This document shows, in pieces, positions 15,083-43,957 of a DNA stretch of 64,000 nt (position 1 is its first letter; every line of letters begins with the position of its first letter). The notes beneath the pieces were generated by a model. The model was not told the DNA's origin, searched no databases, and saw only the letters and a list, made by a program, of their open reading frames with translations. The DNA comes from Rhodoferax sp. Its GTDB lineage: Bacteria; Pseudomonadota; Gammaproteobacteria; Burkholderiales; Burkholderiaceae_C. The position numbers and the translations under genes are program-made. The stretch spans positions 52,285-116,284 of the forward strand of contig JAUXWC010000135.1 of assembly GCA_030685025.1 (NCBI GenBank), in the 5' to 3' direction.

Positions 15083-16327
15083 ATGCGGGAAGTGTGCGTT
15101 GTGGGCGCTGGCGTCGTGGGCGTCACCACCGCCTGGTATTTGGCCGAAGCGGGATGGAGGGTTACCTTGCTGGACAAGGCCGCAACGGTCGGAACCGGGG
15201 CGAGCTTTCAGAACGGTGGGCAGCTCAGCTATCGCTATGTGTCGCCGCTGGCCGACGGCGGTGTGCCGCTGAAGGCACTCAAATGGCTGACCGAACGAGA
15301 TGGACCGCTGCGTTTCAAACCCAGCGCTGACCTGTTCCAGTGGACCTGGTTGGCCCGGTTTTTGATGCGGTGCCATGGTCGAGCCAATCGTGAAACAACG
15401 GATCGCCTCGCGCGATTGGGAGTACTTAGCCGCCAATGCATGACGCATCTGATGGCAAGCAACAAGTTACCGGATTTCAACTGGAAGGAGTCGGGCAAGC
15501 TTGTCGTTTACCGGACCCAAGCGACGTTTGACAGGGCGGCGGGCGGCATGATCGCGTCGGATGCGCAACGAGTCATGTCCGCGCAGGAGTGTCTACAGGC
15601 GGAGCCTGCGCTCGGTGCCCTCAATGGTCAGCTTACGGGAGGCATTTTCACGTCGGGGGAGGCGGTCGCCGATTGCCACGCCTTTTGCGAGTCCCTGATG
15701 AGCGTCTTGGCCGCACATCCAAACTTTGTTGCCTACGTCAATGAAGAGGCGCTTCGTTTCGCAAGAGATTCCAATGGTCGTCTGAACCTGGTAACCCGGA
15801 CCGGGGTCAGGGGTGCCGACGCGTTCGTGCTGGCCAGCGGTATCGCCAGTCGGCGGCTGGCCGCCAGCGTATCGCAGAACTTGCCGCTTTATCCGCTCAA
15901 GGGCTATAGCCTGACGGCCCCGATCACTGTCGGCCACACAGCGCCCAGGAGCAGCATTACCGATTTCGAGCGCAAGGTTCTGTACGCCCGTATTGGTGAC
16001 AATTTGCGGGTCGCGGCGATGGTGGACATGGTCGGCGAGGACGATTGCATCGAACCGTCCCGTATCGCAAGCTTGCTTCGCGTCGCCAGAGTCGACATGC
16101 CGAACGCGGGGGACTATGCCAGAGCGACGACGTGGGCCGGATTGCGTCCGGCCACGCCCGATGGTGCTCCCATTGTCGGGCCATGTTCGGTACCGGGGCT
16201 GTGGCTAAACGTCGGACACGGCCCGCTTGGATTTACCTTTGCCTGCGCAACGGCGAACATCCTGGCCAGCTTGATGGGCAGAGGGCATGGCCCGCTCCCG
16301 ATCGATAGCTTCACGTGGCCCAATTGA
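15083..16327 (+). CDS. dadA: D-amino-acid dehydrogenase (DadA family)
   Basis: 414 residues, a FAD-dependent DAO-fold oxidoreductase. The N-terminal dinucleotide-binding motif is VVGAGVVGVTTAWYLAEAGWRVTLLD, the FAD-contact stretch is ASFQNGGQLSY and the C-terminal flavin motif is GLRPATPDGAPIVG...LWLNVGHGPLGFT. DadA oxidises D-alanine and other D-amino acids to 2-oxo acids at the membrane, giving electrons to the respiratory chain. It is convergent with the peptide transporter operon whose other flank carries a D-Ala-D-Ala dipeptidase, so D-alanine from the cell wall is a plausible substrate. The ATG at 15083 is where the FAD motif begins. Confidence 0.88.
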   Translation: MREVCVVGAGVVGVTTAWYLAEAGWRVTLLDKAATVGTGASFQNGGQLSYRYVSPLADGGVPLKALKWLTERDGPLRFKPSADLFQWTWLARFLMRCHGRANRETTDRLARLGVLSRQCMTHLMASNKLPDFNWKESGKLVVYRTQATFDRAAGGMIASDAQRVMSAQECLQAEPALGALNGQLTGGIFTSGEAVADCHAFCESLMSVLAAHPNFVAYVNEEALRFARDSNGRLNLVTRTGVRGADAFVLASGIASRRLAASVSQNLPLYPLKGYSLTAPITVGHTAPRSSITDFERKVLYARIGDNLRVAAMVDMVGEDDCIEPSRIASLLRVARVDMPNAGDYARATTWAGLRPATPDGAPIVGPCSVPGLWLNVGHGPLGFTFACATANILASLMGRGHGPLPIDSFTWPN

Positions 16328-16342
16328 GGTTTTGTGGGACGG

Positions 16343-16358
16343 ATCGGCGAGAGCCGAT
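16343..16358. terminator. Hairpin between convergent dadA and ABC transporter genes
   Basis: A 6-base perfect inverted repeat (ATCGGC / GCCGAT, GAGA loop) lies in the 48-base gap between the two convergent stops. It has no T-run, so the terminator role is likely only by position. Confidence 0.35.
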
Positions 16359-16375
16359 GCATTGTCCTCATCCGA

Positions 16376-17203
16376 TCAGGCTGCAGCGGTCCGTGATGGC
16401 AGCGCTTCCACTCTCTCCCTGCGAAAGCCGTCCGATGCATCCATGAGTTTGCGCGTGTAGTCGTGCTTGACGCGGCTTGCGGACAGATCGGCTGCTGCCA
16501 GCAACTCAAGGGTCTGGCCGCGCTGCATCACCATCAATTGGTCGCACATGTGCGTGACCACCGCCAGATCGTGGCTCACCATGATGAAGGTCAGGCCTTG
16601 CCTGGCGCGCAGATCTTCCAGCAGATTGAGGACTTCGGCCTGCACGGAGGCGTCCAGGGCTGATGTGGGTTCATCCAGCAGCAGGATCTGCGGCTCCAGA
16701 ATCAGCGCACGCGCGATTGCGACGCGTTGGCGCTGCCCGCCCGACAACTGATGTGGGTAGCGGAATCGAAGTTCCGAGCCCAGTCCAACCTCGCTCAGCG
16801 CGGCCTCGATCCGAGTCTCGGCGTCGCCGATGTCGTGAATCGCCAGGGGCTCGGCCAATATGCGGTCAACAGTCTGGCGCGGGTGCAGCGAGCCGTAGGG
16901 ATCCTGAAACACCATTTGCACCCGTCGGCGGAATGACTTGCTCCCTGGCAGCGCTTGGGCCTCCTGCGTCGGTCCGATGAGCCCGACCGTACCCGACTGC
17001 ACAGGCGCCAAGCCGCAGATGGCGCGCAACACCGTGGACTTGCCGGAGCCGGATTCCCCGACGATGCCAAAACTCTCACCGGCCTGCACGCGCAACGAGA
17101 TGTCGGCCACGGCCACAAAGTCATCGTAAACAACACGCAGGTGTTGCACTTCAATGCCGGTCCGAGCGCGGCCCTTGGTCACAGGGGAATTCACAAGGAC
17201 CAC
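16376..17203 (-). CDS. Peptide ABC transporter ATP-binding protein (DppF/DdpF type)
   Basis: 275 residues with Walker A GESGSGKST, Q-loop VFQDPYGSLHP, signature LSGGQRQRVAIARAL, Walker B ILLLDEPTSALD and the switch His in MVSHDL. The Q-loop context FQDPYGSL is typical of the oligopeptide/dipeptide import ATPases. It is the last of five genes (binding protein, two permeases, two ATPases) and overlaps the upstream ATPase gene by 13 bases. The ATPase shorter than DppF here lacks much of the usual C-terminal oligopeptide extension. Confidence 0.9.
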   Translation of the reverse strand: MVLVNSPVTKGRARTGIEVQHLRVVYDDFVAVADISLRVQAGESFGIVGESGSGKSTVLRAICGLAPVQSGTVGLIGPTQEAQALPGSKSFRRRVQMVFQDPYGSLHPRQTVDRILAEPLAIHDIGDAETRIEAALSEVGLGSELRFRYPHQLSGGQRQRVAIARALILEPQILLLDEPTSALDASVQAEVLNLLEDLRARQGLTFIMVSHDLAVVTHMCDQLMVMQRGQTLELLAAADLSASRVKHDYTRKLMDASDGFRRERVEALPSRTAAA

Positions 17204-18039
17204 TCCGGCTGACGATCAAGGGTTGGCAGTGGATGGCGGTCATCCCCCAAGCGGGGCAGGCAGTTGAGCAAGCCGCGCGTGTAGGGATGTTGCGCATCCG
17301 CCAGTCCGCCAGCGGCAATCTCCTCCACCACCCGGCCGGCGTACATGACCAGGATTCGATCGCAAAAGGTTGACACCAGGCGCAAATCGTGGGAGACAAA
17401 GATCAAGCCCATGCCGCGTTGTACGACCAGGGCGTCGAGGATTGCGAGGACTTGGAGTTGCACCGTCACGTCCAGCGCCGAGGTGGGTTCGTCGGCGATC
17501 AACAACTGCGGATTGGCAATCAGCATCATGGCAATCATGGCGCGCTGTCCCATGCCGCCAGAAACCTCGTGCGGATAGAGCTGGTAGACGCGCTCCGGTT
17601 GATCAATCTGCACCGCCGCCAGCGCTGCCAGCGCCTGGCTACGTGCTTGGGCACTGGAAATCCGGCGATGCGCTCGCAGCGTCTCCACCACCTGATCGCC
17701 TATTCGTATCACCGGATTGAGTGAGAACTTCGGATCCTGCAGTACCATGGCAATCCGGGCGCCGCGCAGCGCGCGCCGTTGTTTGGGGCTGCACCGCAGC
17801 AGATCGATCCCGTTGAAGGTCAGCGTTTTGGCAGTGACAATCGCTTCGGGTGCGGTCAAGCCAACGATGGCGCGACCGGTCTGCGATTTGCCCGAGCCGG
17901 ACTCGCCGACGATGCCGAGACGTTCACGTCCGAGCTTGAACGAGACGCCGCGCACGGCCTCGGTGCGGGTGCCGTCGCGGTTGGGAAACGACACCCGCAA
18001 GTCCTCCACTACCAGCATCGAGTCAGCAAGGGCGATCAT
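17191..18039 (-). CDS. Peptide ABC transporter ATP-binding protein (DppD/DdpD type)
   Basis: 282 residues with Walker A GESGSGKSQ, Q-loop VLQDPKFSLNPV, signature VSGGMGQRAMIAMMLI, Walker B LLIADEPTSALD and switch His in FVSHDL. These are the marks of the first ATPase of nickel/dipeptide/oligopeptide importers. It overlaps the permease gene upstream by 4 bases and the second ATPase downstream by 13 bases, so the whole operon is translationally coupled. Confidence 0.9.
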   Translation of the reverse strand: MIALADSMLVVEDLRVSFPNRDGTRTEAVRGVSFKLGRERLGIVGESGSGKSQTGRAIVGLTAPEAIVTAKTLTFNGIDLLRCSPKQRRALRGARIAMVLQDPKFSLNPVIRIGDQVVETLRAHRRISSAQARSQALAALAAVQIDQPERVYQLYPHEVSGGMGQRAMIAMMLIANPQLLIADEPTSALDVTVQLQVLAILDALVVQRGMGLIFVSHDLRLVSTFCDRILVMYAGRVVEEIAAGGLADAQHPYTRGLLNCLPRLGDDRHPLPTLDRQPEWSL

Positions 18040-18977
18040 TTGGCGCCCTTTGGATCGAGCGCGTCTCGCAAGCCGTCACCCAACAGGTTGAAAGCCAGGC
18101 TGACCAGGAAGATGGCCGCGCCCGGTGCCGCCGCCACCCACCACTGGTCCAGCACGTACAGTCGCCCATTGGCGATCAGCGCGCCCCATTCTGGCATGGG
18201 GGGCTGCGCCCCGAGCCCCAAGAAACCGAGTCCGGCTGCTGTCAAGATGATGCCCGCCATGTCCAGCGTGACCCGCACAATGACGGATGCGACACACAGC
18301 GGCATGATGTGCCTGAGCACAATGCGCCAGGGCGACGCGCCAGTCAACTGAACCACGGCAATGTAATCGGCTTGCCGGATAGTGAGCGTCTCGGCGCGCG
18401 CAATTCGCGCGTAGGGCGGCCATGACGTGATGGCAATGGCGATCACCGCGTTTTCGATGCCCGGACCCAGCGAGGCGACCAAGGCCAAGGCCAGAATCAG
18501 GCGCGGGAACGCCAGGAATATGTCCGTCACGCGCATCAGTGCCGCATCCAGCCAGCCCCCTGCATAACCCGCGACCGTGCCCACCAGCAGGCCAATGGGT
18601 GCGGCCAGGATAGCGACCAGCACCACCACATACAGTGTGATGCGGGAACCAAAAATGATGCGGGAAAGAATGTCACGGCCCTGGTCGTCGGTGCCAAACC
18701 AGTGGGCCGTGGACGGCGGCAGCAACCGGGTGGTGAGCAAGTCGCCCGTGGTCGGCGAGTAGGGTGCCAACCGGTCAGCGAACAGGGCCATCAGCACCAG
18801 CCCGATCACAATGGCCAGGCCGATCATGGCCAGCCGGTTGCGGGCGAACGTGCGCCACGCGCCATAGGCCCGGCCCAGCGCGGCCTGGCGGCGCGACATT
18901 GGACGCTCCGACATCAGCCAGTCATGCAGGCTCTGCCGATGCTGCGCCTCGTGTCCATGGTCGAGGATGTTGTTCAT
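18036..18977 (-). CDS. Peptide ABC transporter permease (DppC type)
   Basis: 313 residues. A cytoplasmic N-terminus is followed by about six membrane helices. The EAA loop, which docks the ATPase, is seen around ARAETLTIRQADYIAVVQLTGASPWRIVLRHIMP. The segment HWFGTDDQGRDILSRIIFGSR is typical of DppC/OppC proteins. It sits between the partner permease and the first ATPase with 4-base overlaps on both sides. Confidence 0.9.
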   Translation of the reverse strand: MNNILDHGHEAQHRQSLHDWLMSERPMSRRQAALGRAYGAWRTFARNRLAMIGLAIVIGLVLMALFADRLAPYSPTTGDLLTTRLLPPSTAHWFGTDDQGRDILSRIIFGSRITLYVVVLVAILAAPIGLLVGTVAGYAGGWLDAALMRVTDIFLAFPRLILALALVASLGPGIENAVIAIAITSWPPYARIARAETLTIRQADYIAVVQLTGASPWRIVLRHIMPLCVASVIVRVTLDMAGIILTAAGLGFLGLGAQPPMPEWGALIANGRLYVLDQWWVAAAPGAAIFLVSLAFNLLGDGLRDALDPKGAK

Positions 18978-20023
18978 CGGGTTCTTGTTCGGGGGTCAAG
19001 CAACTGGTATAGCAGGTCAGACAGCAGGTTCAGCCCGATAAAGACAGAGCCCACCACGATGGTGCCGCCCATGACGGCATTCATGTCGGCGTTCTGCAGC
19101 GAATTGGTGATGTACAGACCCAGACCCGGCCAGGCGAACACGGTCTCGGTCAGCACCGAGCCCTCCAACAAACCGGCGTAGGACAGCACCACCACCGTGA
19201 CCAGCGGAACCATGGCATTGCGCAAGGCATGGTGCCAGATGATGCGGGACTCCGACAGGCCCTTGGCGCGCGCCGCCACCACATATTCCTGCGCCAGTTC
19301 ATTGAGCATGAAGGATCTCGTCATGCGGCTGATGTAGGCGAGCGAGAAATAGCCCAGCAAACAGGCTGGCAGAATCAGGTGCGACAGGGCGTTGCCAAAG
19401 GTATCCCATTGCCCGGCCAGTGCGGCGTCTAACAGCAAGAAGCCGCTGACCAGGGTCAGCGAGTACTCATAGGCGACATCAATGCGTCCGGGGCCACCGA
19501 CCCAGCCCAGGCGCGCATAGAACAGCACCAGGCCCATCAGCCCGAGCCAGAAAATGGGCACGGAATACCCGATCAGACCTAGCACGCGCACCGCATGGTC
19601 AGCCACCCCGCCACGGCGCACGGCGGCCCAGACACCCAAGGGCACCCCGAAGCCTGCGCCAATGATGATGCCCAGCGTAGCGAGTTCAATGGTGGCGGGA
19701 AAGGTGCGCCGTATGTCCTGCATGACCGGGTTGGACGTGAGCACGGATGTGCCGAAATCGCCGTGCAGCACCCGGCCGAGATAGATGTAGAACTGTTGCC
19801 ACAGCGGCTTGTTCAGTCCCAGTTCTTCGCGCACGCGCGCTACCACGTGCTCTGGCGCCCGCTCCCCCACGATGGCCAGCACCGGGTCAACGGGAATCAC
19901 CCTACCGATGAAGAAGGTAACGGCGAGCAGCCCCAGGTAGGTCAGAAAAATGGCCACCAGCAAGCGGCCCGCAGCTGCGGCCAGGCGCCGCGCCCGGATG
20001 CCATTGACAGGTGAAAACCTCAC
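18974..20023 (-). CDS. Peptide ABC transporter permease (DppB type)
   Basis: 349 residues with six membrane helices. The N-terminal helix and the first periplasmic region (VDPVLAIVGERAPEHVVARVREELGLNKPLWQQF, YLGRVLHGDFGTS) are typical of DppB/OppB, and the EAA loop is around EYVVAARAKGLSESRIIWHHALRNAMVP. It overlaps both neighbours by 4 bases. Confidence 0.9.
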   Translation of the reverse strand: MRFSPVNGIRARRLAAAAGRLLVAIFLTYLGLLAVTFFIGRVIPVDPVLAIVGERAPEHVVARVREELGLNKPLWQQFYIYLGRVLHGDFGTSVLTSNPVMQDIRRTFPATIELATLGIIIGAGFGVPLGVWAAVRRGGVADHAVRVLGLIGYSVPIFWLGLMGLVLFYARLGWVGGPGRIDVAYEYSLTLVSGFLLLDAALAGQWDTFGNALSHLILPACLLGYFSLAYISRMTRSFMLNELAQEYVVAARAKGLSESRIIWHHALRNAMVPLVTVVVLSYAGLLEGSVLTETVFAWPGLGLYITNSLQNADMNAVMGGTIVVGSVFIGLNLLSDLLYQLLDPRTRTR

Positions 20024-21615
20024 TTGGAGACTGCGAACATGTGGGTGGACGCCGATGTCGAACCGAGTTTCAAGCCCTGTACGTCGCTACGCATGGCCGC
20101 CACTTCAAGCTGCTGGTAGATCATGATAAACGGGCTGTTCTTGCGGAAGTCGGCCTGTATCTCCTCGTACATGGCGCGGCGCTTGGCCGGATCACGCTCC
20201 AGCACGGCGGCATCTGCCTTGCGGGTCAGTTCGGGAATATCCCAGGCATTGCGCCAAGCCAGGGGCTTGGATTTGGCGTTGTCGGTGTTGTCGGGGTTGC
20301 GCGCAAACGTATCGGCGTTGGTGTGAGGGTCCCAGTAGTCGGTGCCCCATTGCCCGATGTACAAGTCGTGGCTGCGAGCCCGGTATTTGGTCACCGTCTG
20401 TTTGCCGTCGCCGGGCAGTATCTCGATGTCGATTCCGGCACGCTTGGCGGTTTGCTGGAACGATTCAGTGATGCCCTGCACCAGCGGCGTGGTGCGCATG
20501 TCGATCGTGACCTTGAACCCGTCGGGGAAACCAGCCCTGGCCAGCAGTGCGCGTGCCTTTTCAACGTCGAGCTTGTAGGGGTTAACGTTGCTGGCGCCGA
20601 GCAGACCGGCTGGCAGGAAGTTCTGATGCACCACGCCAATGTTCTTGATCAGGGTCTCGCCGATGGCGGCGTAGTCGATCAGCCACTTGAAGGCCTCGCG
20701 CACCTCGGGCTTGGCCAGCTTTGGGTTCTTCTGGTTCAGGCTGATGTAGAACAGCGTGCCTTTGGGGCTGGACGTGGTCCTGATGTCCTTGCTGCCAGCG
20801 AGGGCGGACAGGTCTTGCGGCGACAGGTTGCGGGCGATGTCGGCATCGCCTTTTTCCAGCAGCAGGCGCTGCGTCGCGCTTTCCTTCACATGGCGGTAGA
20901 TGACGCGCGGCAGTTTGGCTTTGACGCCGTGGTAGTGGTCATTGCGCTCCAGCGCGACGATTTCGTTGGCGCGCCACTCCCGTAGTTTCAGGGGCCCCGA
21001 GCCGGCGAAACTGGTCTTTAGCCAGCCATGACCCATATCGCCATTGACCTCCTTGGACATCACCAACCTCTTGTCAATGATCGCGCCAACGTCGGCAGTC
21101 AGGCAGTTGTAGACGAACGTCGGCGAGTAGGTCTGGTCAGTCTCGAGCGATAGCGTCAAGGCCCCGGTTTGTTTGACCTTTTCCTTGACATTGGCCTTGT
21201 TCAGGCCGAATTGCGTCAGGATGAACGCTGGTGACTTGTCCAGCATCACAGCCCGCTGCAACGAAAACACCACGTCCTCAGCCGTCAGTGGATTGCCCGA
21301 CGCGAATTTCAGGCCGGGCTTGAGTTCAAACGAGTAGGTCTTGCCATCGGCGGAAACCGACCACGATTTGGCGACGTCGGCGACCAGCCTGGAGGGGTCC
21401 CCGACATCCGAGCGAAGCAGCCGGTCGTAGGTGTTGCCCATGATCTCGCTGGCGGAAATCTCGAAGACTTCGGCCGGGTCCATGCTGATGATGTCGTCAA
21501 TTGCCCAGGCCACCACCAAGGTATCTTTCGGAGTTGCCGCCAACAGACTCGGCGGCATCGTCAACGCAGCCGCGGCGGCCACGGCCATCGCGGATCGGAT
21601 CAGCAGATATTTCAC
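20020..21615 (-). CDS. Periplasmic dipeptide/oligopeptide-binding protein (SBP family 5)
   Basis: 531 residues with a signal peptide (residues 1-26, ending SLLAA) and a family 5 solute-binding fold: IDDIISMDPAEVFE, LKPGLKFASGNPLTAEDVVFSLQR, FYISLNQKNPKLAKPEVREAFKWLID and YIGQWGTDYWDPHT. It catches peptides in the periplasm for the importer encoded downstream. The start is GTG at 21615 with an ideal AGGAG six bases upstream. The gene runs divergently from the D-Ala-D-Ala dipeptidase gene. This arrangement recalls the E. coli ddpXABCDF set, so D-Ala-D-Ala or murein peptides are the likely ligand; inferred. Confidence 0.9.
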   Translation of the reverse strand: MKYLLIRSAMAVAAAAALTMPPSLLAATPKDTLVVAWAIDDIISMDPAEVFEISASEIMGNTYDRLLRSDVGDPSRLVADVAKSWSVSADGKTYSFELKPGLKFASGNPLTAEDVVFSLQRAVMLDKSPAFILTQFGLNKANVKEKVKQTGALTLSLETDQTYSPTFVYNCLTADVGAIIDKRLVMSKEVNGDMGHGWLKTSFAGSGPLKLREWRANEIVALERNDHYHGVKAKLPRVIYRHVKESATQRLLLEKGDADIARNLSPQDLSALAGSKDIRTTSSPKGTLFYISLNQKNPKLAKPEVREAFKWLIDYAAIGETLIKNIGVVHQNFLPAGLLGASNVNPYKLDVEKARALLARAGFPDGFKVTIDMRTTPLVQGITESFQQTAKRAGIDIEILPGDGKQTVTKYRARSHDLYIGQWGTDYWDPHTNADTFARNPDNTDNAKSKPLAWRNAWDIPELTRKADAAVLERDPAKRRAMYEEIQADFRKNSPFIMIYQQLEVAAMRSDVQGLKLGSTSASTHMFAVSK

Positions 21616-21837: not shown

Positions 21838-22437
21838 ATGGACTGCGAGCTGATTGCGAAGCATGCCGATTTTCGGCCCTTGTCATCCATCCCTGGCCTC
21901 GCGGTGGACCTTCGTTATGCGGACCACCGCAATTTCGTCGGTCGGGATTTGTACGGCGTGCTGGACTGCGCCTGGCTGCACCGCGAGGCGGCTCTGGGGC
22001 TGCACGCGGTTGTCGCGCACCTGCGCGGGCATCACCCCGGGCTGATACTGGTGGTGCTGGACGCACTGCGCCCCCACCGGGTGCAAGTGCGGCTCTGGGA
22101 GCATTTGGCGGGCAGCGAACTGCGCCAGTATTTGGCCGACCCGGTTCGCGGGTCCATTCATTCCTTCGGGATGGCGGTCGATGTGACGCTGCTGGATCGC
22201 CGTGGTGTCGAGCTCGACATGGGCACGGCATTCGATGATCTGAGCGAACTGTCACAGCCCAAGTTCGAATCCAAGCACCTGGCGCTGGGGTCGTTGACGG
22301 ATGTCCAGATCGCTAATCGGGTCCTATTGCAGCGTGCCATGCGAGCAGGCGGATTTCATGGAATCTCCAGTGAATGGTGGCATTTTGATTGCGGTGATCG
22401 CGAACGCGTTCGACGACACTTCCAGCGCGTGGACTAG
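21838..22437 (+). CDS. ddpX: D-alanyl-D-alanine dipeptidase (VanX/DdpX family)
   Basis: 199 residues, the usual VanX size. Zinc ligands His108 and Asp115 lie in SIHSFGMAVD and His182 in EWWHF; Glu179 is the catalytic base and Arg78 (DALRP) the transition-state Arg. It cuts D-Ala-D-Ala to D-alanine in the cytoplasm. Neighbours include a dipeptide importer (divergent) and D-amino-acid dehydrogenase, which together would let the cell use D-Ala-D-Ala as food. No vanH/vanA ligase genes are near, so this is a catabolic and not a vancomycin-resistance enzyme. The ATG at 21838 has AAGG upstream; a GTG at 21733 and an ATG at 21751 are in frame but add unconserved residues. Confidence 0.9.
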   Translation: MDCELIAKHADFRPLSSIPGLAVDLRYADHRNFVGRDLYGVLDCAWLHREAALGLHAVVAHLRGHHPGLILVVLDALRPHRVQVRLWEHLAGSELRQYLADPVRGSIHSFGMAVDVTLLDRRGVELDMGTAFDDLSELSQPKFESKHLALGSLTDVQIANRVLLQRAMRAGGFHGISSEWWHFDCGDRERVRRHFQRVD

Positions 22438-24348: not shown

Positions 24349-24412
24349 GAAGTGCTATAAAAAAGGTAGCTGTTCACGCAGGGTTTAAGGGGGTTGGTGG
24401 CCTGTTTTGTTA
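24349..24412 (-). repeat. Short intergenic repeat of Comamonadaceae type, reaching into the kinase 3' end
   Basis: The stretch reads GTGCTATAAAAAAGGTAGCTG, then TTCACGCAGGGTTTAAGGGGG and GGCCTGTTTT. I recall many near-copies of such a CTATAAAAA-xTAGCTGCTxxCGC-...-GGGCTxxAGGCC element between genes in Comamonadaceae. It supplies the last codons and the stop of the kinase gene. The identification is from memory of the pattern and needs a genome-wide search. Confidence 0.4.
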
Positions 24413-30237: not shown

Positions 30238-30256
30238 GCTGCTTTCTAGCAAGGTT

Positions 30257-31276: not shown

Positions 31277-31397
31277 TGTAGACACGCCCTCTCGCGGCAG
31301 CCATCGAACTGCGTTCGTGGCCCATAATCAAAAGGTATGCAGTGCCGACTCGCCGGTGCCGTGCGTCTATACCACGAAGTTATGCGCTGCGACACGA

Positions 31398-31403
31398 TTG
31401 ACA
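31398..31403 (+). promoter_or_regulatory. Candidate -35 box in the divergent promoter region of the two murein operons
   Basis: A perfect TTGACA lies 40 bases before the AmiD-like gene in the 166-base gap between the two divergent operons. No convincing -10 sits at 16-18 bases, so this is a weak call. The gap must hold the promoters for both operons and is the likely place for the LysR regulator (33621-34523) to bind. Confidence 0.25.
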
Positions 31404-31442
31404 TGGGGCGTCTTCAATTTGCCGTAGTAAGCTGACCGACTT

Positions 31443-34523: not shown

Positions 34524-34577
34524 TCCCTGTACCGCCAAACTGCGATGTTGCCCGTAAACAAGACCCGAGTCACGCTG

Positions 34578-35651: not shown

Positions 35652-35666
35652 AATGAGACGCGAAGC

Positions 35667-36797: not shown

Positions 36798-37797
36798 GGC
36801 GCTGGAGGCGCCCTCTGCCGTGGCCCGCCAGTTGGCGCACAACGATCAGCTCTACAGCGACTTCGGTGCCTTGCTGCGCAAGCGCGCTCCGACATCGGTG
36901 CTGACCGTGGCGCGAGGCAGCTCGGATCACGCGGCGCACTTCATGGCCTACCTGATCATGGCCCGTCTAGGTCGACTCGTGACCTCTTTGCCGATGTCGT
37001 TGATCACCCTGTACCAGTCCCAGATCGCGTGTGACGGACTGGTCTCGATGGCGTTCTCTCAATCTGGCCAAAGCCCCGATCTGGTGGCCCCCACTCGAGC
37101 CTTCTCGGATGCGGGCGCCATCACCGCAGCCTTTGTCAACGAGCCCGAGTCGCCCTTGGCCCATGTGGCGCAGTGGGTGTTCCCCTTGCATGCCGGCCGG
37201 GAAGCCAGCGTGGCCGCCACCAAGAGCTTCATCACCCAGTTGGTCGCCGGAGCACGCGTGGTGGCTGCCTGGCAAGACAATTTGGTGCTGCAGGCCGCGC
37301 TGTCTGGACTTCCGGGTGTGTTGTCACGAGCGGCCCATGCGGACTGGTCGGCAGCGGTGCAGACCTTGCGTGGCGCCACCCGCCTACTGGTGATCGGACG
37401 CGGCACCGGTCTGCCCATCGCCATGGAGGCGGCCCTGAAGTTCAAGGAAACCTGTGCCATCCAGGCCGAGGCGTTTTCGGGCGCCGAAGTCAAACACGGC
37501 CCGATGGCCCTGATCGACGAGGGCTACCCGATGCTGATCTTTGCGCCGCGCGGACCGGCGCAGCCCGGCCTGCTGGCGCTGGCCGACGAGATGCGCCAAC
37601 GCGGCGCCAATGTATTGCTGGCCGCGCCGGCGGGAACCCGTGGTGCGAGCCTGCCGATTGTCGAGACCGCCTCCATCGAGCTTGATCCGATCTCGGCGAT
37701 CCAGAGTTTTTATCCGATGGTCGAAGCCCTGGCGCGCGAACGCGGTCGCAACCCCGATGCGCCGCCGCATCTGGCCAAGGTCACCCGAACCAACTGA
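36757..37797 (+). CDS. SIS-domain glucosamine-6-phosphate deaminase (NagB-II type)
   Basis: About 346 residues with two SIS domains: SVLTVARGSSDHAAHFMAYL, FSQSGQSPDLVAPTRAFSDAGA and EASVAATKSFITQL in the first, RLLVIGRGTGLPIAMEAALKFKETCAIQAEAFSGAEVKHGPMALI in the second. It resembles the isomerase half of GlmS without the glutaminase domain, as do NagB-II/AgaS deaminases. With nagA just upstream it would turn glucosamine-6-phosphate into fructose-6-phosphate and ammonia. The ATG at 36757 lies inside nagA; an ATG at 36787 is also possible. The gene is convergent with dacB with only 19 bases between stops. Confidence 0.88.
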   Translation: MLKELQSKTHMLAEALEAPSAVARQLAHNDQLYSDFGALLRKRAPTSVLTVARGSSDHAAHFMAYLIMARLGRLVTSLPMSLITLYQSQIACDGLVSMAFSQSGQSPDLVAPTRAFSDAGAITAAFVNEPESPLAHVAQWVFPLHAGREASVAATKSFITQLVAGARVVAAWQDNLVLQAALSGLPGVLSRAAHADWSAAVQTLRGATRLLVIGRGTGLPIAMEAALKFKETCAIQAEAFSGAEVKHGPMALIDEGYPMLIFAPRGPAQPGLLALADEMRQRGANVLLAAPAGTRGASLPIVETASIELDPISAIQSFYPMVEALARERGRNPDAPPHLAKVTRTN

Positions 37798-37816: not shown

Positions 37817-39310
37817 CTACGACTGACTGGCCACCCACTCAATGATGGCGTCCAGTATCGGGGGTCCCTTGTCAGCGGCACTGTCGTGGTTCAGCAGCGC
37901 GACGACCAGCCACTGCCGCTGGCTCGCATCGGTCACGAAACCGACCAGCCCAACGGCATTGCGCAGGGTCCCCGTCTTGAGGCGGGCCCGCCCCTGCGCC
38001 GGGGAACCCTTGAAACGACGCGACAGCGTGCCATCCACGCCCGCCACCGGCAAGCTGCTTAGCAGTTCTGGCCAATGCGGGCCTTGCTGCGCAGCCAACA
38101 ATACCGCAGCCAACTGCGCCGGTGTAATGCGTTCGGCGCGTGACAAGCCCGAGCCGTTGTCCATCACCAGTCCGTCGACCGTGATGCCCTTGCCGACGAA
38201 CCATTCACGAACGACACGTTCCGCGGCTTGCAGTGTTGCTTCATCACCGCGCGCCGCGCTGGCACCCATACGCAGGTAGGTCAGTCGCGTCAGCGGATTG
38301 TCCGAGCGTTTCAACATGCCGCGCACGACCTCTGCAAACGGCCGTCCGAGATGGTGCACCAGCACGGTGGCGGTGGCCGGGGTTGGGCCCTCGCTGTCCG
38401 CGCCATCAATGTGCCCACCGAGCTGTTGCCAAATCTGACGCACCGCTGCGCCAACGACCCACTGGCGGTCAAGCAAGTTGAGCTCGGGCGCCTGGCTGCA
38501 ATTTCTGGGAAACTGGCCCTGAAAAGTGATTTGGGCGCCCAGATCGTCCTGTTGCACCTGGGGAAGCGCCCAACTGCCACCCCAATCAGTGCAGAGTTTG
38601 TCATTCAGCGTCACGGCCCGTGTGTCCAGGTGCAGGCCGGGCCATGCGGGACTGCTGCGGACCGACACGGTGCGCGCATCGGATTGAAAGGCGAATCGCA
38701 GCAGGCTTGTGTTGAGGTTCAATGCGTCGGGAATTACGTTGTAGGGGAATTCGGGTGCCTCATCGAAGGGCATGGTGCCGATGTCCAGCCGTGACGGATT
38801 GAACAAGGTGCGGTCCACCACCAGGCCGCCCTGGATATGCCGCACGCCCTGGTCGCGCAACTGCCGCAACATGTCCCACAGCGCGCCCCAGTCAAGGTCG
38901 GTATCGGCACCTCCACGCAAGTACAGAGGGCCCGCGATCACACCGTCCTGGGGTTTGTCGGTGGCGGCCAGGTCGGTGCGTCCGCGCGCGTTGGGGCCCA
39001 GGCGCTCCAGTGCAACGACGGTGGTGACCAGTTTCATGGTCGAGGCCGGTTGCATGGGTTCATCGGGGTTCACCCACAGCCCCTGGCTGCCGGGTGCCAA
39101 GGGATAAGCCACCACGCCGAGTACCTGTTCCGTCATGCCTGCCTGTTGCAAGGCCGCCTGCACGGAAGGCGGCAGCAACCTGCCTGGCACGCTTGCGCAG
39201 CCCGCCAACAGAAGCAGGTACAGCGCGGGCACCCAGCGCAAACCGGAGTCTGTCACGGTGTCCGGCCGGGTGCGCGCAGCTCGGACTTGGCGGTCGGTAG
39301 TGAGGAGCAT
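37817..39310 (-). CDS. dacB: D-alanyl-D-alanine carboxypeptidase/endopeptidase (PBP4, DacB, S13), lipoprotein-like
   Basis: About 497 residues. The three penicillin-binding motifs are SxxK in PASTMKL (Ser90), SxN in KRSDNPLTR and KTG in LKTGTLRNAVGLVGFV. The S13 insert lies between the first two. The N-terminus carries LLLLAGCAS, a lipobox-like site, so it may be anchored to a membrane, unusual for PBP4. It removes terminal D-Ala and cuts D-Ala-mDAP cross-links in the periplasm. The start at 39310 (ATG) is chosen, but a later GTG before the signal is possible. It runs divergently from the TonB receptor gene. Confidence 0.9.
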   Translation of the reverse strand: MLLTTDRQVRAARTRPDTVTDSGLRWVPALYLLLLAGCASVPGRLLPPSVQAALQQAGMTEQVLGVVAYPLAPGSQGLWVNPDEPMQPASTMKLVTTVVALERLGPNARGRTDLAATDKPQDGVIAGPLYLRGGADTDLDWGALWDMLRQLRDQGVRHIQGGLVVDRTLFNPSRLDIGTMPFDEAPEFPYNVIPDALNLNTSLLRFAFQSDARTVSVRSSPAWPGLHLDTRAVTLNDKLCTDWGGSWALPQVQQDDLGAQITFQGQFPRNCSQAPELNLLDRQWVVGAAVRQIWQQLGGHIDGADSEGPTPATATVLVHHLGRPFAEVVRGMLKRSDNPLTRLTYLRMGASAARGDEATLQAAERVVREWFVGKGITVDGLVMDNGSGLSRAERITPAQLAAVLLAAQQGPHWPELLSSLPVAGVDGTLSRRFKGSPAQGRARLKTGTLRNAVGLVGFVTDASQRQWLVVALLNHDSAADKGPPILDAIIEWVASQS

Positions 39311-39668
39311 GTTGCTTGGAATTCCTTGGTCGACTCCGCGTCGGCGGTCACGACGTGTGCCGACACTGTAACGCGCGTTAAGGCCGTAGCGCATGAAGAC
39401 CATAGCACGCCAGCGGGTTGAACGAATGCGTGGGAATGGCGTCTCCTGTCAAAGTGCTTCAATTCAAATCATTCCTGTTGGTTATGCCTTTCAAGCAAGC
39501 ATTCATTGCAGCAAAGATACATTTCGGGCCGCTACCTATGGCTTACGCGGGGCAACTGGTTCATCATGGAAACCGCTCAGATGCAGGTTCTGCGTGCGCT
39601 GGAGATGCGATGACTGGCTGCCAAGTGACCCTGGCAGCCAGGCGATTTATAACCACAGGAGATTCACC
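39311..39668. other. Gene-free divergent region between dacB and the TonB receptor
   Basis: 358 bases without a convincing gene. Base use in the middle (around 39460-39530) is richer in A and T than the genes on both sides, as expected for promoters of the two divergent genes. An AGGAG at 39657-39661 is the ribosome site of the receptor gene. I see no clear repeat, operator or RNA gene. Confidence 0.5.
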
Positions 39669-42518
39669 TTGAACATGAATATGAAAAAATTGACCCACAG
39701 CCTGGCGCTGCTGGGCTTGAGCACGCACTTGGCTAGCATGGCGCAGACGCCGTCGGCAACGCAGTCACTGCCGCGCGTCGAAATTACCGGCTCCAGCATC
39801 AAGCGGATTCAGGCGGAAGGTGCTTTGCCGATCGAAGTCATCACGGCGGACGATATGGTCAAACGCGGCATTGATTCCGTTCAACAAATGCTGGAGCAGG
39901 TGTCCGGCAATGCCTCGGGCGCGGATCAGGCCGTGTCCAACAACAACATTTTTGGCGGTGACACCGACCGTTTGACCGGTGGCTCCGCCAACGCCAACTT
40001 GCGCGGCTTTGGACCAGGCAGCACCCTGGTATTGCTCAATGGCCGCCGCGTCAGCACGCACGGCATGAGCGGCGGCGGCGTTGACATCAACACCATTCCG
40101 TTTGCCGCCATTCAACGCGTCGAAGTCCTCAAGGACGGGGCCTCCGCCATTTACGGCACGGACGCGATTGGTGGCGTGATCAACTTCATCCTGAAGAAAG
40201 ATTTCGAGGGTGTCGCCGTGGGCGTGGATGTCTCCAGTCCGATGGAGTCGAGCGCAGGCATGAAACGCCGTGCGTCGATGACGGTGGGCAAGGGCAAGCT
40301 GGACAACGATGGCTTCAATGTCATGGCCAGTCTGTCGATGGACAAAAACGACATTCTTCGCGGATCGGATCGTGACTGGGCCAGTGGTTTCAATCCCGCG
40401 ATGGGCCTCTCGCCCAACTCCAGCAGTTCTCCGTTTGCCAACATCATCACTGGTTCCGGCACCGCTTTGGGGACGGGCTCGCGGGTTGGCGCAACGGACC
40501 CCACCCGGTACACGCGCATCAACCTGCTGAGCATGCGGGGCCAATGCGACGCAGTGACCGAGGGCACCCAGTTCCAGCCGGAGCTGTGGACCAGGCCAAC
40601 GGCGACGGCTGCGCAAAAGGCCTCCAATATTGCCAGTGGCAGGTACCTGTGCAACACCGACTATGGCAGCCAGTACATGCTGGCCGCTCCCACGGAGGCG
40701 CAAAACCTGGTCATGCACGGGAGTCTCAAGCTGTCGGACAAGCACACTGCGATGGTCGAGCTGACCGGCTCCAGAGTGGGCGTGTTGTCCGAGTTGACAC
40801 CCACGCAATTCAGCACTGGTTCGTCGTCCAATGCGGCCATTGGCAACAACTTTTACCCCGTCAACGGGCCGTATTACCTGAATCTGAAGGATCAAGGTGT
40901 TCTGGATTTTGACCCGACCAAGCCGATCTCATACCGCTTTCGCATGCAGGATTGGGGTAACCGGGTCATCGACAACGTCTCGACCAACGGCCGCCTGCTC
41001 CTGGCGCTCGAAGGCGTAGTGGGCAAGTACGACTACAAGCTGGGTCTGTCCAGAGCGGCGGCGGCGGCCCATTCCAACCTGCATGACGGCTACGCGTACT
41101 CAAGCAAGCTGCACGCGGCGATGAAGACTGGCATTATCAACCCATGGGTGCAGCCGGGCCAAACCCAAACCCCGCAAGCGATGGCCTTGATTGAATCCAC
41201 CAAAGCGCGCGGCAAAGTCATGGGCGGCAAGACGGGCTTGACACAGTTCGATGGCTCACTGTCGGGTGAACTGATGGACCTGCCAGCGGGGCCTTTGGGC
41301 TTTGCTGTCGGATTTGATGCACGCAAGGAGACCTACGAATTCGCCAATACCACGGGCGATCCGGACTTGGCCATTACCTGCGTCAGCACTTTGCTGACGA
41401 CCGTTGCTTCGGATGTATTGCTTTGCCCGGGGAACTCGGGTGTACCGCTGGTCTCGCGTGACATTCATGCCGTGTATGGCGAACTGGCAGTGCCCGTGGT
41501 CAAGGGCTTGGACCTCCAACTGGCGGTGCGTACCGACCGCTACAGCGGGTTTGGCAACACCACCAATCCCAAGATCGCATTCCGCTATCAGCCAGCCCAA
41601 TCCCTGGTGTTCCGTGGTTCCGTGAACACGGGCTTCAAGGCGCCCACTTTCCAGCAGCAGCAGATCAACACCGCGCCGCAATTGTCAACCGGCAAGTGGG
41701 CCGACCCGGTGAAGTGCCCAACCGATCCGTCGTACTGTGATTTTCAACCGAACTACACGGCCGGTGGCAATCCCGACCTGAAACCCGAGAAGTCCAAGCA
41801 GGGAACATTCGGGGTGGTGTGGGCGCCCGCCGACAACCTGACCCTGTCCGCCGATTACTGGCGTGTCGACTTGGCGGACCGCATCCGCAAGCTGACTTTG
41901 ACGGAGGTGTTGAACAATTATGACTTGTTCACGGACCGCTTTATTCGTGATGCCGCTGGCAATGTGGAGGTCATCCGTACCGGCTGGATCAACGCCGCGG
42001 GCAGCTCTACCAAGGGTCTTGACTGGGGTGCAAGCGGTTCGGTCAAGTCAGGCGTTGGCCAGTGGAGCGCAGCCATCAACGGCACCCACATGTTGAGCCA
42101 TAAGGAAGCCGCCCTGGAGAACCAGCCACTGGTCGAGTATGTGGGTACCTTTGGCACCCGCACCTTGTACCTCCGCGACAAATTCACCGCCAGCCTGACT
42201 TGGAGCCAGGGACCATGGAGCAGCACGCTCACCGGCACGTACAAGTCCGGCTACAAGGACCAGGATCTGTCGGACCGTGCGACGATGCCCGCGACGGCTA
42301 ACACCGACGTGAACAGCTACACCACCTTCGGTCTGAGCGCCACGTACCGGGGCTTCAAGGATGCCACCATCACCGTTGGCATCCGCAATCTGTTCGATGT
42401 GAAGCCCCCCTTTACGCACCATGACGTGGATGACGTGGCCGGTGCCGGTTGGGATCCACGCGTGGCGGACCCGTTTGGCCGTACCTTGACCGTGTCCATG
42501 AAGTACAGCTTCAAGTAG
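39669..42518 (+). CDS. TonB-dependent outer-membrane receptor
   Basis: About 949 residues. A signal peptide (ends ASMAQ) is followed by the plug domain: RVEITGSSIKR, EGALPIEVITADDMVKRGIDSVQQMLEQV, LRGFGPGSTLVLLNGRR and VEVLKDGASAIYGTDAIGGVINF. The long beta-barrel ends in FGRTLTVSMKYSFK. Such large receptors bring in carbohydrates or peptides, and its place among murein genes suggests muropeptides or glycan fragments; inferred. I chose TTG at 39669 because AGGAG lies exactly 7 bases upstream, whereas the ATG at 39675 would have a 13-base spacer. Confidence 0.92.
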   Translation: MNMNMKKLTHSLALLGLSTHLASMAQTPSATQSLPRVEITGSSIKRIQAEGALPIEVITADDMVKRGIDSVQQMLEQVSGNASGADQAVSNNNIFGGDTDRLTGGSANANLRGFGPGSTLVLLNGRRVSTHGMSGGGVDINTIPFAAIQRVEVLKDGASAIYGTDAIGGVINFILKKDFEGVAVGVDVSSPMESSAGMKRRASMTVGKGKLDNDGFNVMASLSMDKNDILRGSDRDWASGFNPAMGLSPNSSSSPFANIITGSGTALGTGSRVGATDPTRYTRINLLSMRGQCDAVTEGTQFQPELWTRPTATAAQKASNIASGRYLCNTDYGSQYMLAAPTEAQNLVMHGSLKLSDKHTAMVELTGSRVGVLSELTPTQFSTGSSSNAAIGNNFYPVNGPYYLNLKDQGVLDFDPTKPISYRFRMQDWGNRVIDNVSTNGRLLLALEGVVGKYDYKLGLSRAAAAAHSNLHDGYAYSSKLHAAMKTGIINPWVQPGQTQTPQAMALIESTKARGKVMGGKTGLTQFDGSLSGELMDLPAGPLGFAVGFDARKETYEFANTTGDPDLAITCVSTLLTTVASDVLLCPGNSGVPLVSRDIHAVYGELAVPVVKGLDLQLAVRTDRYSGFGNTTNPKIAFRYQPAQSLVFRGSVNTGFKAPTFQQQQINTAPQLSTGKWADPVKCPTDPSYCDFQPNYTAGGNPDLKPEKSKQGTFGVVWAPADNLTLSADYWRVDLADRIRKLTLTEVLNNYDLFTDRFIRDAAGNVEVIRTGWINAAGSSTKGLDWGASGSVKSGVGQWSAAINGTHMLSHKEAALENQPLVEYVGTFGTRTLYLRDKFTASLTWSQGPWSSTLTGTYKSGYKDQDLSDRATMPATANTDVNSYTTFGLSATYRGFKDATITVGIRNLFDVKPPFTHHDVDDVAGAGWDPRVADPFGRTLTVSMKYSFK

Positions 42519-42564
42519 TCGGTGCGCAGGGGGCAACGCTTCGTGCGCGTTTCTTCCTGAGAAC

Positions 42565-42583
42565 CCCCCGGCTTCGCCGGGGG
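42565..42583. terminator. Strong hairpin between convergent TonB receptor and murA-like genes
   Basis: An 8-base perfect stem (CCCCCGGC / GCCGGGGG) closes a 3-base loop, 46 bases after the receptor stop. No T-run follows on either strand. It probably ends or protects the receptor mRNA. I see no gene in the 161 bases between the two stops. Confidence 0.45.
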
Positions 42584-42679
42584 ATGGTTAGTGCACCCGC
42601 TTGCTCGGTTGCCTTCTCGCTGCGCGCCAAATTGACTTCCTGCGCGTGCAAGCCGGGGGTAGCACGCATGGAGATTCGG

Positions 42680-43957
42680 TTACGCACGCCGGGTGATGCG
42701 CGCGCCCAGGCCAAGCAATTTTTCCTCGACGCGTTCATAGCCGCGTTCAATCATATTGGCGTTCTGTACCGTGCTCGTGCCGGTCGCGCACAGCGCGGCA
42801 CCCAATAGCGCCATGCCAGCGCGAATGTCGGGCGAACTCAGGGTGGTGGCGCGCAGCTTGGAGCGGCCACTGATGACCACGCGATGCGGGTCGCACACGA
42901 CCGCGTTGGCGCCCATGCCAATCAGTCGGTCCACAAAGAACAAGCGTGATTCAAACATCTTCTCGAAGAACAGCACAGTGCCTTCAACTTGCGTGGCCAG
43001 CGTGATCATGCAACTCATCTGGTCGCTGGCAAACTGCGGCCACGGCCCGTCTCCTATGACTGGAATGGATCCATCGAAGTCTCGCAGCACCCGTCGCTCC
43101 TGGTCGGCAGGCAGAAAAATATGGTCCTTGAGCAGCTCAATCCTGACACCGAGCGCCGAGAACACCCGACGACACATCCAATAGGCATGCATATCCGTGC
43201 CCTCGACCCTGATCTCTCCGCCAGTGGCCGCCGCCAGCGCCAAATAGGAGGCCGCCTCGATGTGGTCGTGGCAGACTTGGTGGGTCGTGCCACGCAGGCT
43301 CTCGACGCCGTCAACGTTGAGTTGATTGGTGCCAATGCCGGTGACTTTGGCGCCCATGGCGTTGAGCATGTGGGCGAGGTCCTGCACATGCGGCTCGCAC
43401 GCGGCATTGCGAATCACGGTGTGGCCAGCGCTGACCACCGCAGCCATCAAAATGTGCTCGGTACCGGTCACGGACGGTTCGTCAAAAAACAGGTCGGCGC
43501 CAGTGAGGTGGCCCGAGACGGTGAAGTCATAGCGGTCCGCAAAAGAGACCGTGGCCCCCAATTTGCGTAGTCCATAGATGTGGGTATCGAGGCGACGCCG
43601 GCCAATGACGTCCCCGCCAGGCGGAAACAGGCTCGCCTTGCCAGCGCGGTGCAGCAGCGGCGCCACACACAAGATGGAGGTGCGCACCTTGTTGCACAAT
43701 TCGGGTCCGATTTCGTGCGTTTTCAGGTGATCTACGTGGATGCGCACTCGCTCACCGCAGCGATCAACCTGTCCACCCAGCGCGCTAATGACTTCCAGCA
43801 TATGCCGAACATCGATGATGTCCGGCACGTTTTCAAGAATCACCGCCTGGTCTGTCAGGATGCAGGCCGCGATCATTGGCAGAATGGCGTTCTTGTTGCC
43901 CGATGCCCGCACCGTGCCGCGTAGTGGGATGCCGCCCTCGATTTCAAAAGTGGACAT
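42680..43957 (-). CDS. murA: UDP-GlcNAc 1-carboxyvinyltransferase (MurA) paralogue with Asp in place of the catalytic Cys
   Basis: 425 residues, full length. It has Lys22 and Asn23 (SGNKN), the Arg cluster after the loop (GRRRLDTH), the Asp in FASDQMSCM and the Arg in SPDIRAGMALLGAAL, all as in MurA. The flexible-loop Cys115 of E. coli is Asp116 here (PPGGDVIG). Natural Cys-to-Asp MurA enzymes (Mycobacterium, Chlamydia) stay active and resist fosfomycin. MurA adds enolpyruvate from PEP to UDP-GlcNAc, the first step of murein synthesis. The gene stands apart from the hisG-linked murA place usual in betaproteobacteria, so a second copy is likely elsewhere. The start ATG at 43957 fits the family. 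Confidence 0.88.
   Translation of the reverse strand: MSTFEIEGGIPLRGTVRASGNKNAILPMIAACILTDQAVILENVPDIIDVRHMLEVISALGGQVDRCGERVRIHVDHLKTHEIGPELCNKVRTSILCVAPLLHRAGKASLFPPGGDVIGRRRLDTHIYGLRKLGATVSFADRYDFTVSGHLTGADLFFDEPSVTGTEHILMAAVVSAGHTVIRNAACEPHVQDLAHMLNAMGAKVTGIGTNQLNVDGVESLRGTTHQVCHDHIEAASYLALAAATGGEIRVEGTDMHAYWMCRRVFSALGVRIELLKDHIFLPADQERRVLRDFDGSIPVIGDGPWPQFASDQMSCMITLATQVEGTVLFFEKMFESRLFFVDRLIGMGANAVVCDPHRVVISGRSKLRATTLSSPDIRAGMALLGAALCATGTSTVQNANMIERGYERVEEKLLGLGARITRRA

What the first reader, a model, noticed from the sequence alone, without database searches (positions are those of the whole stretch)
15083..43957. A 29-kb peptidoglycan-eating island
Nearly every gene from dadA to the MurA paralogue belongs to a family that cuts, carries or breaks down murein: PBP4, two amidases, DigH-like glycosidase, LD-carboxypeptidase, AmpG-like and dipeptide carriers, kinase, MurQ, NagA, NagB-II, Ala-Glu epimerase, D-Ala-D-Ala dipeptidase and D-amino-acid dehydrogenase, plus a TonB receptor and a LysR regulator. 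Recycling genes are usually scattered. Their grouping suggests a dedicated scavenging system, perhaps for murein of other bacteria. The end products would be fructose-6-P, D-lactate, pyruvate and L-Ala-L-Glu.
Basis: partly seen in the sequence, partly recalled or inferred. Interest (0 to 1): 0.85.

Follow-up and report, generated by a model that had tools for sequence, protein, structure and literature searches.

The report
Murein-eating gene island with re-acetylase
A block of 23 neighbouring genes in a Burkholderiales bacterium, whose core keeps the same order in many related genomes, is predicted to strip, import and burn bacterial cell-wall material as food, and its core would include a membrane enzyme, related to one in human lysosomes, that likely puts acetyl groups back on wall sugars that lack them.

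Summary
In detail: window 14957-42518 has 23 genes, 14 of them in families that cut, import or catabolise murein, amino sugars or D-Ala. The island recurs: of the best 80 named loci found with the NagX-like protein, 61 keep murQ-ampG-nagX-digH contiguous (45 of 53 with full flanks). The own genome has AnmK, a NagZ-type GH3 and a stronger AmpG elsewhere, so the island looks accessory; in four of eight MurQ+ genomes, though, the island AmpG is the best one. My reading: murein catabolism by a denuded-glycan route, in which amidase and DigH-type enzyme free glycan pieces, NagX re-acetylates glucosamine ends, and AmpG, kinase, MurQ, NagA and NagB-II finish. NagX keeps five HGSNAT active-site residues in 88 of 88 distinct rows. 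The SddA deacetylase family is absent from 20 of 20 genomes tested, hinting at a foreign source; CE4 deacetylases are present, so self-origin stays open. No assay exists. New variant of the Tannerella ampG-murTKQ kind.

The parts
14957..16327 (+). DadA-type D-amino-acid dehydrogenase
   Evidence: NCBIfam PRK00711 406.6 bits, over its 383 cut-off
16376..21615 (-). dppFDCBA-type dipeptide/oligopeptide ABC importer (16376-17203, 17191-18039, 18036-18977, 18974-20023, 20020-21615)
   Evidence: Pfam ABC_tran, BPD_transp_1, SBP_bac_5; none of the NCBIfam models listed is over its cut-off, substrate unknown
21838..22437 (+). D-Ala-D-Ala dipeptidase (VanX/DdpX-type, M15), no obvious signal peptide
   Evidence: PF01427 E 2e-29; NCBIfam DdpX-type model 139.5 bits, under its 176 cut-off
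22563..23234 (-). Amidase_2 protein with signal-like N-terminus
   Evidence: PF01510 E 1e-15
23218..24318 (-). Ala-D/L-Glu epimerase-type enolase-superfamily enzyme
   Evidence: NF041118 231 bits, under its 500 cut-off
24385..25326 (-). BadF-type sugar kinase, candidate MurNAc/GlcNAc 6-kinase
   Evidence: PF01869; PDB relatives NagK and a MurNAc/GlcNAc kinase; sequence does not fix specificity
25323..26918 (-). GHL10 glycosidase (DigH/Cwp19 family), N-terminus like a lipoprotein signal
   Evidence: PF02638 212 bits; Cwp19 E 7e-72; family in 7 of 8 MurQ+ and 0 of 12 MurQ- genomes
26922..28055 (-). NagX/HGSNAT-like transmembrane N-acetyltransferase; corrected start about 28055
   Evidence: HGSNAT E 2e-33 with profile; five active-site residues kept in 96 of 96 island-type rows, 88 distinct; no Pfam match
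28052..29344 (-). AmpG-like muropeptide carrier
   Evidence: TIGR00901 182 bits, under its 350 cut-off
29341..30252 (-). MurQ, MurNAc-6-P etherase
   Evidence: TIGR00274 306 bits, over its 302 cut-off
30257..31285 (-). AstE/AspA-fold zinc hydrolase, candidate isopeptidase of stem peptide
31286..31442 (.). region between the two divergent gene runs
   Evidence: sequence; blocks shared with L042 and L044
31443..32354 (+). AmpDh2/AmiD-type amidase with PG-binding domain and lipobox-like signal
   Evidence: PF01510 plus PF01471; AmpDh2 E 8e-87
32373..33611 (+). Gate-domain (SpmA-SpmB-like) membrane protein
   Evidence: PF07670, two stretches
33621..34523 (+). LysR-type regulator
   Evidence: PF00126 and PF03466
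34545..35651 (+). S66 LD-carboxypeptidase with twin-arginine-like N-terminus
   Evidence: PF02016/PF17676; NCBIfam 160 bits, under its 378 cut-off
35667..36797 (+). NagA, GlcNAc-6-P deacetylase
   Evidence: TIGR00221 257 bits, over its 226 cut-off
36787..37797 (+). NagB-II-type GlcN-6-P deaminase
   Evidence: NF046059 261 bits, under its 430 cut-off
37817..39403 (-). PBP4/DacB-type DD-carboxypeptidase/endopeptidase
   Evidence: TIGR00666 197 bits, over its 108 cut-off
39675..42518 (+). TonB-dependent receptor, likely start 39675 (ORF opens at 39393)
   Evidence: PF00593 and PF07715; 25 NCBIfam models listed, none over its cut-off

Best explanation
These 23 neighbouring genes, whose core recurs in the same order in many Burkholderiales genomes, are predicted to strip, import and burn peptidoglycan, and their core would include a transmembrane enzyme that likely re-acetylates glucosamine ends of the glycan. 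Shown by sequence: the gene families, two divergent gene runs with overlapping or closely spaced reading frames, the recurring murQ-ampG-nagX-digH(-kinase-amidase) order, and retained active-site residues of the NagX-like protein. Inferred: (1) a TonB receptor passes fragments over the outer membrane; (2) PBP4 and LD-carboxypeptidase trim peptides, and the AmpDh2/AmiD-type amidase removes them, leaving bare glycan; (3) the DigH/Cwp19-type enzyme cuts bare glycan to small pieces; (4) the NagX-like protein uses cytosolic acetyl-CoA to acetylate a non-reducing GlcN, so that a GlcNAc-specific glucosidase can act later; (5) AmpG imports, a NagZ-type enzyme encoded elsewhere splits, the kinase (or AnmK elsewhere) makes MurNAc-6-P, MurQ gives GlcNAc-6-P and D-lactate, NagA and NagB-II give fructose-6-P; (6) freed peptides enter by the Dpp-type importer and are broken by the dipeptidase, epimerase, AstE-like enzyme and DadA. 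LysR would control it.
For: Families. Conservation: scan of genome contigs with the NagX-like alignment gave 392 relatives, best 80 kept; of 80, digH 74, ampG 70, murQ 67, amidase 54, kinase 49; four core genes contiguous on one strand in 61 of 80 and in 45 of 53 loci with full flanks. Evenly drawn order sample: 12 of 300 genomes have a NagX over 400 bits; around the 11 that are not the window's own, digH in 10, kinase in 10, murQ in 8; 5 of these 11 loci are also in the named scan. GHL10 in 7 of 8 MurQ+ and 0 of 12 MurQ- genomes. NagX residues N23, H37, D47, R108, E196 equal HGSNAT N286, H297, D307, R372, E499 in 96 of 96 island-type rows, 88 distinct; roles in PMC11199644, passages seen. E499 binds the GlcN 3-OH there, which fits GlcN better than 3-O-substituted muramic acid. 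NagX family: fitness data for glucosamine use, PMC9007349, passages seen. De-N-acetylated bare strands exist: SddA gives GlcN-MurNAc, PMC12440217, passages seen. SddA family PF04748 matched in 0 of 20 genomes, with E. coli and Caulobacter ringing among the controls.
Against: No transcript, growth or enzyme datum. The NagX-like protein scores 154 bits against a 480-bit NagX equivalog cut-off, the AmpG-like 182 against 350, the kinase 54 against 370. NAG-type NagX keeps the same five residues (7 of 7), so these residues do not show a muropeptide acceptor. CE4 deacetylases occur in 20 of 20 genomes (own: 5 matches), so self-made GlcN is possible. In 4 of 8 MurQ+ genomes (G033, G029, G013, G035) no AmpG is over the family cut-off and the island copy is the best match, so there the island AmpG may serve ordinary recycling too. 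L079, L092 and L099 (full flanks) carry a NagX-like gene without the core, and L106 only digH (and a TonB receptor match) beside it. In G057 MurQ and NagX lie about 2 Mb apart. GHL10 Cwp19 is a lytic transglycosylase, E. coli DigH a hydrolase; which applies is unknown.
Confidence: 0.58

Rival explanations
1. The island mainly recycles the cell's own wall; grouping reflects co-regulation, not feeding on other bacteria, and NagX repairs GlcN made by the cell's own CE4 deacetylases.
For: CE4 family in 20 of 20 genomes tested, own genome 5 matches; in 4 of 8 MurQ+ genomes the island AmpG is the best AmpG match; PBP4 and amidases also act on the own wall (established knowledge).
Against: In the own genome a further set lies elsewhere: AnmK (C75), NagZ-type GH3 (C19), AmpG at 524 bits (C264). 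The 12 MurQ-negative genomes tested have AmpG and GH3 family matches in 12 of 12 (AmpG over cut-off in 9) and AnmK in 11 of 12, so recycling does not seem to need the island. TonB receptor and LysR fit uptake and induction.
Confidence: 0.28
2. The NagX-like protein is a MurNAc carrier like Tannerella MurT, so the core is a murT-murK-murQ module and no re-acetylation takes place.
For: PMC9007349 says NagX is distantly related to TfMurT; the Tannerella operon joins ampG, murT, murK and murQ.
Against: All five HGSNAT active-site residues are kept. PMC5790795 puts Tf_MurT in the sodium symporter superfamily, which disagrees with that kinship; I had no MurT sequence to test. PMC9007349 argued against a carrier role because NagA and other sugar carriers are also needed.
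Confidence: 0.15
3. It is a GlcNAc/chitin utilisation cluster that picked up murein genes.
For: NAG-type NagX sits beside nagA or nagB-II in L135-L137.
Against: MurQ, amidase, GHL10 and the dipeptidase have no known role in chitin use (established knowledge); six relatives carry a separate GH3, AmpG-like and NagX cluster with a distinct NagX branch, 183-209 bits against 687-736.
Confidence: 0.05

Closest known systems
Tannerella forsythia ampG-murTKQ operon (Tanf_08345-08385), PMC5388701, PMC7670621 (passages)
   Same: AmpG-type carrier, MurNAc kinase and MurQ in one cluster of a Gram-negative; there tied by experiment to use of external muropeptides
   Different: Here a NagX/HGSNAT-like gene where that operon has MurT, a GHL10 enzyme where it has ybbC, plus amidases, LD-carboxypeptidase, PBP4, peptide importer, epimerase, dipeptidase, NagA, NagB-II, DadA, TonB receptor and LysR
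E. coli murein recycling (AmpG, NagZ, AmpD, AnmK, MurQ, LdcA, MppA/Opp, YcjG)
   Same: Same chemical steps for sugar and peptide (recalled; partly in PMC13046382, passages)
   Different: Scattered genes there (recalled); here linked, with extracytoplasmic-looking LD-carboxypeptidase and amidases and a NagX-like step
NagX of nag clusters (Shewanella and others), PMC9007349 (passages)
   Same: HGSNAT-related, same five active-site residues
   Different: Separate branch: W43, P125, D172, W187, W193 in the island type against C, L/V/A, N, Y, F/Y/H in 7 NAG-type rows; sits with murQ and digH
Human HGSNAT
   Same: Catalytic and sugar-binding residues
   Different: 377 against 663 residues, no luminal domain; bacterial inner membrane (inferred)

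Membership tests
MurQ etherase (TIGR00274) | score over curated cut-off | tested here: met
   306.1 against 302 bits
NagX equivalog (NF046061) | score over curated cut-off | tested here: not met
   154 against 480 bits; filed only as NagX/HGSNAT-like
HGSNAT-type transmembrane N-acetyltransferase | His-Asp dyad, Asn for acetyl-CoA, Arg and Glu for GlcN | tested here: met
   N23, H37, D47, R108, E196 in 96 of 96 rows, 88 distinct
HGSNAT-type transmembrane N-acetyltransferase | acetyl transfer to GlcN | not testable with these tools
   needs assay
AmpG muropeptide MFS (TIGR00901) | score over curated cut-off | tested here: not met
   182 against 350 bits; own C264 copy 524 bits
DigH/GHL10 | PF02638 domain over cut-off | tested here: met
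   212 against 27.9 bits
DigH/GHL10 | hydrolysis of bare glycan | not testable with these tools
   the one solved relative listed, Cwp19, is a lytic transglycosylase (title of PMC6016235)
AmpDh2/AmiD amidase | Amidase_2 plus PG-binding domain | tested here: met
MurK MurNAc kinase | small residue at MurK T94 position and no bulky acid near S133-L135 | tested here: inconclusive
   of 52 rows Ser 35, Asn 15, His 2 (the window is His); Arg150 also in S. tokodaii hexokinase
Tannerella ampG-murTKQ operon kind | ampG, MurNAc kinase and murQ linked | tested here: inconclusive
   ampG-like, BadF-type kinase and murQ are linked, but MurNAc specificity of the kinase is not shown
Tannerella ampG-murTKQ operon kind | MurT carrier and YbbC in the cluster | not tested
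   no MurT or YbbC sequence was compared with the island; Pfam gave none of its genes a DUF1343 (YbbC) hit, that family number being recalled

The most novel reading that the evidence does not exclude
The island is a lysosome-like murein digestion system: just as HGSNAT must re-acetylate heparan glucosamine before a glycosidase can work, the island's NagX re-acetylates GlcN-MurNAc ends so that bacteria can eat foreign cell wall protected or marked by de-N-acetylation (SddA strands of Gram-negatives, PgdA-type walls of Gram-positives), a wall form its own lineage does not make by SddA.
Probability: 0.3. Interest if true: 0.85.

Novelty: new variant of a known kind. Interest (0 to 1): 0.62.

Why it matters
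If true, a set of Burkholderiales genera (Roseateles, Pelomonas, Massilia, Inhella, Paucibacter and others) carries a ready-made pathway to live on dead or lysed bacteria, whose cell walls are a large pool of carbon and nitrogen. It also gives a place to test two open matters: what happens to de-N-acetylated glycan after SddA or PgdA, and what bacterial HGSNAT relatives act on in nature.

Tried and rejected
A first idea that the 26922-28055 protein is a MurT-type carrier (my script labels say murT_nagX) gave way to NagX/HGSNAT; it stays as a rival.

Arg150 of the kinase as a MurNAc carboxylate binder: rejected, because the S. tokodaii hexokinase has it too.

The Gate/SpmAB protein as a murein-specific carrier: not supported as a general rule. 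Relatives at E<=1e-20 occur in 14 of 60 genomes including the own; of those 14 only the own and G035 have the island core, and G035's copy is on another contig. Close copies (65-91%) sit in islands in 18 of 80 loci.

A literature trace of the locus in Burkholderiales: the searches showed no listed paper that describes it; subscription journals are mostly missing from the library, and beyond the papers cited with passages the listings were seen as titles and abstract starts only.

LysR site: conserved blocks upstream of the amidase gene were seen in three loci but no motif was established. The 50 rows shown of the AstE-like fold comparison did not include an entry titled MpaA, which is not evidence either way. 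The AmgK/MurU route was not tested.

I lowered the best explanation from 0.60 to 0.58 and raised the self-recycling rival from 0.25 to 0.28 for that. I also moved one membership row (ampG-kinase-murQ linked) from met to inconclusive.


Full report
OBSERVATION. The window is G000:C176:52285-116284 of a 5.7-Mb draft genome of 338 contigs; ARAGORN finds no tRNA and Rfam at gathering thresholds no family in it. I read 23 genes between 14957 and 42518. Family scans put 14 in murein, amino-sugar or D-Ala families and nine in carrier, regulator or less specific families. On the minus strand astE-like, murQ, ampG, nagX-like, digH, kinase, epimerase and amidase run from 31285 to 22563 with junctions that overlap or leave a few bases, except 66 bp between kinase and epimerase; on the plus strand amidase, gate, lysR, ldcA, nagA and nagB-II run from 31443 to 37797. 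The 157 bases between them (31286-31442) would hold a divergent promoter region. Several long ORFs needed shorter starts: NagX-like about 28055 (its match begins at residue 139 of the longer ORF), NagB-II 36787, TonB receptor 39675.

NAMES AND LIMITS. Of the proteins scanned, only MurQ, NagA, PBP4, DadA and the flanking MurA pass a listed NCBIfam cut-off. The other names are family-level readings. The amidase with the PG-binding domain is closest to AmpDh2 (E 8e-87) and AmiD (4e-53) among solved structures; the GHL10 enzyme to Cwp19 (7e-72, the only hit). The LD-carboxypeptidase has a twin-arginine-like start and the amidase and GHL10 enzyme have lipobox-like starts; export is thus likely, judged by eye.

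CONSERVATION. MurQ at E<=1e-50 is in 9 of 60 relatives including the own genome. Around the other 8 I fetched about 60 kb each (41 kb in G035 and 34 kb in G027, where contigs end). In 7 of 8 further island genes lie there; ampG adjoins murQ in 6 of 8, the NagX-like gene is present in 5 of 8; G027 has murQ with amidase, dpp, vanX, ldcA and dacB but no ampG, nagX or digH in the part held; G057 has none beside its MurQ. A scan of named genomes with a six-row NagX-like alignment matched 392 relatives; the best 80 were kept, beta-proteobacterial by title except a Kapaibacterium-labelled MAG contig (L082) that shows no other island gene. Counts over the 80: digH 74, ampG 70, murQ 67, amidase 54, kinase 49, PBP4 25, dipeptidase 24, lysR 20, gate 18, dadA 16, TonB receptor 14, ldcA 12, nagA 5, nagB-II 5, astE-like 5, epimerase 1. 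The four core genes are contiguous on one strand in 61 of 80, and in 45 of 53 loci with full flanks. Being chosen by a NagX match, these 80 cannot say how common the island is. An even draw of the order gave 12 of 300 genomes with a NagX over 400 bits; in the 11 not the window's own, digH 10, kinase 10, amidase 8, murQ 8, nagA 5 and nagB-II 5 (some stretches end at contig ends). Five of these 11 loci overlap the named scan. In an even draw of the class (369 genomes) the only match over 400 bits was the window's own; the six others score 156-310 bits.

OTHER COPIES. Matches to AnmK are in 19 of 20, GH3 in 20 of 20, the AmpG family in 20 of 20 genomes. In the own genome AnmK lies on C75, a NagZ-type GH3 on C19 and a second AmpG on C264; the C264 AmpG scores 524 bits, the island one 182. 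This is not so in all: AmpG is over the family cut-off in 13 of 20, namely 4 of 8 MurQ+ and 9 of 12 MurQ- genomes, and in G033, G029, G013 and G035 the island copy is the best match. GHL10 is in 7 of 8 MurQ+ and 0 of 12 MurQ- genomes. The 12 were picked by hand from the 51 relatives without MurQ at 1e-50, all of the same family and without even a weak match; G057 (MurQ+) was not among the 20.

THE NAGX-LIKE STEP. A profile of the protein finds only HGSNAT chains among solved structures (E 2e-33). PMC11199644 (passages) assigns N286 to the acetyl carbonyl, H297-D307 as catalytic dyad, R372 to the 6-OH and E499 to the 3-OH of GlcN. All five are kept in 96 of 96 island-type rows, 88 of them distinct, and in 7 of 7 NAG-type rows; the island-type rows were gathered by similarity to the window's protein. 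PMC9007349 (passages) shows by fitness data that NagX is involved in glucosamine use in five bacteria and proposes periplasmic acetylation. PMC12440217 (passages) shows that E. coli SddA turns bare strands into GlcN-MurNAc and that such strands resist a muramidase. The island sets a denuding amidase, a bare-glycan enzyme and a GlcN acetylase side by side, so I infer that re-acetylation makes GlcN-capped fragments usable by AmpG and NagZ. The SddA family has no match in 20 of 20 genomes while it rings in E. coli and Caulobacter among the 14 controls; generic CE4 deacetylases match in 20 of 20, so a self source is not excluded. PMC7511926 (passages) documents de-N-acetylated prey wall in Bdellovibrio.

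KINASE. It belongs with NagK and a MurNAc/GlcNAc kinase. At the position that PMC10465942 (passages) ties to MurNAc choice the island rows have Ser in 35, Asn in 15 and His in 2 of 52, the window being His (50 rows distinct). Specificity is open.

VERDICT. It is a new variant of the ampG-murK-murQ kind known from Tannerella, larger and with a NagX/HGSNAT-like gene in its core. That it feeds on foreign murein is likely but untested.

Noticed in passing
42680-44104: A second MurA (445 bits, over cut-off) with Asp where the own genome's main MurA on C244 has the catalytic-loop Cys (GGDVIGRR against GGCAIGSR). Such Asp forms are fosfomycin-insensitive in some bacteria (recalled)..
   Followed up: partly
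32373-33611: Gate-domain protein resembling fused SpmA-SpmB lies between the amidase and lysR; close copies (65-91%) recur in 18 of 80 named loci. In B. subtilis spmA-spmB follow dacB (recalled), so a murein-linked role of this little-understood family may be testable.
   Followed up: partly
G033:C1:1186271-1191042 and similar places in G007, G029, G013, G035, G027: A separate cluster of GH3, AmpG-like and NAG-type NagX genes in relatives with MurQ, probably for GlcNAc oligomers.
   Followed up: no
31286-31442: Sequence blocks near the start of the amidase gene (TTGACA-like and CATAAC-like) are shared with L042 and L044; a LysR site was not established.
   Followed up: partly
L019:3000-12036: The island of G007 also holds a second TonB receptor, an arginase-family protein, a PF00144 beta-lactamase-family protein, a second LysR and a beta-eliminating lyase; the TonB receptor, arginase and second LysR recur in G021.
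   Followed up: no
L020:10809-11909: MbnB/TglH-type RiPP enzyme beside murQ in G007; homologues in three more relatives by clustering.
   Followed up: no
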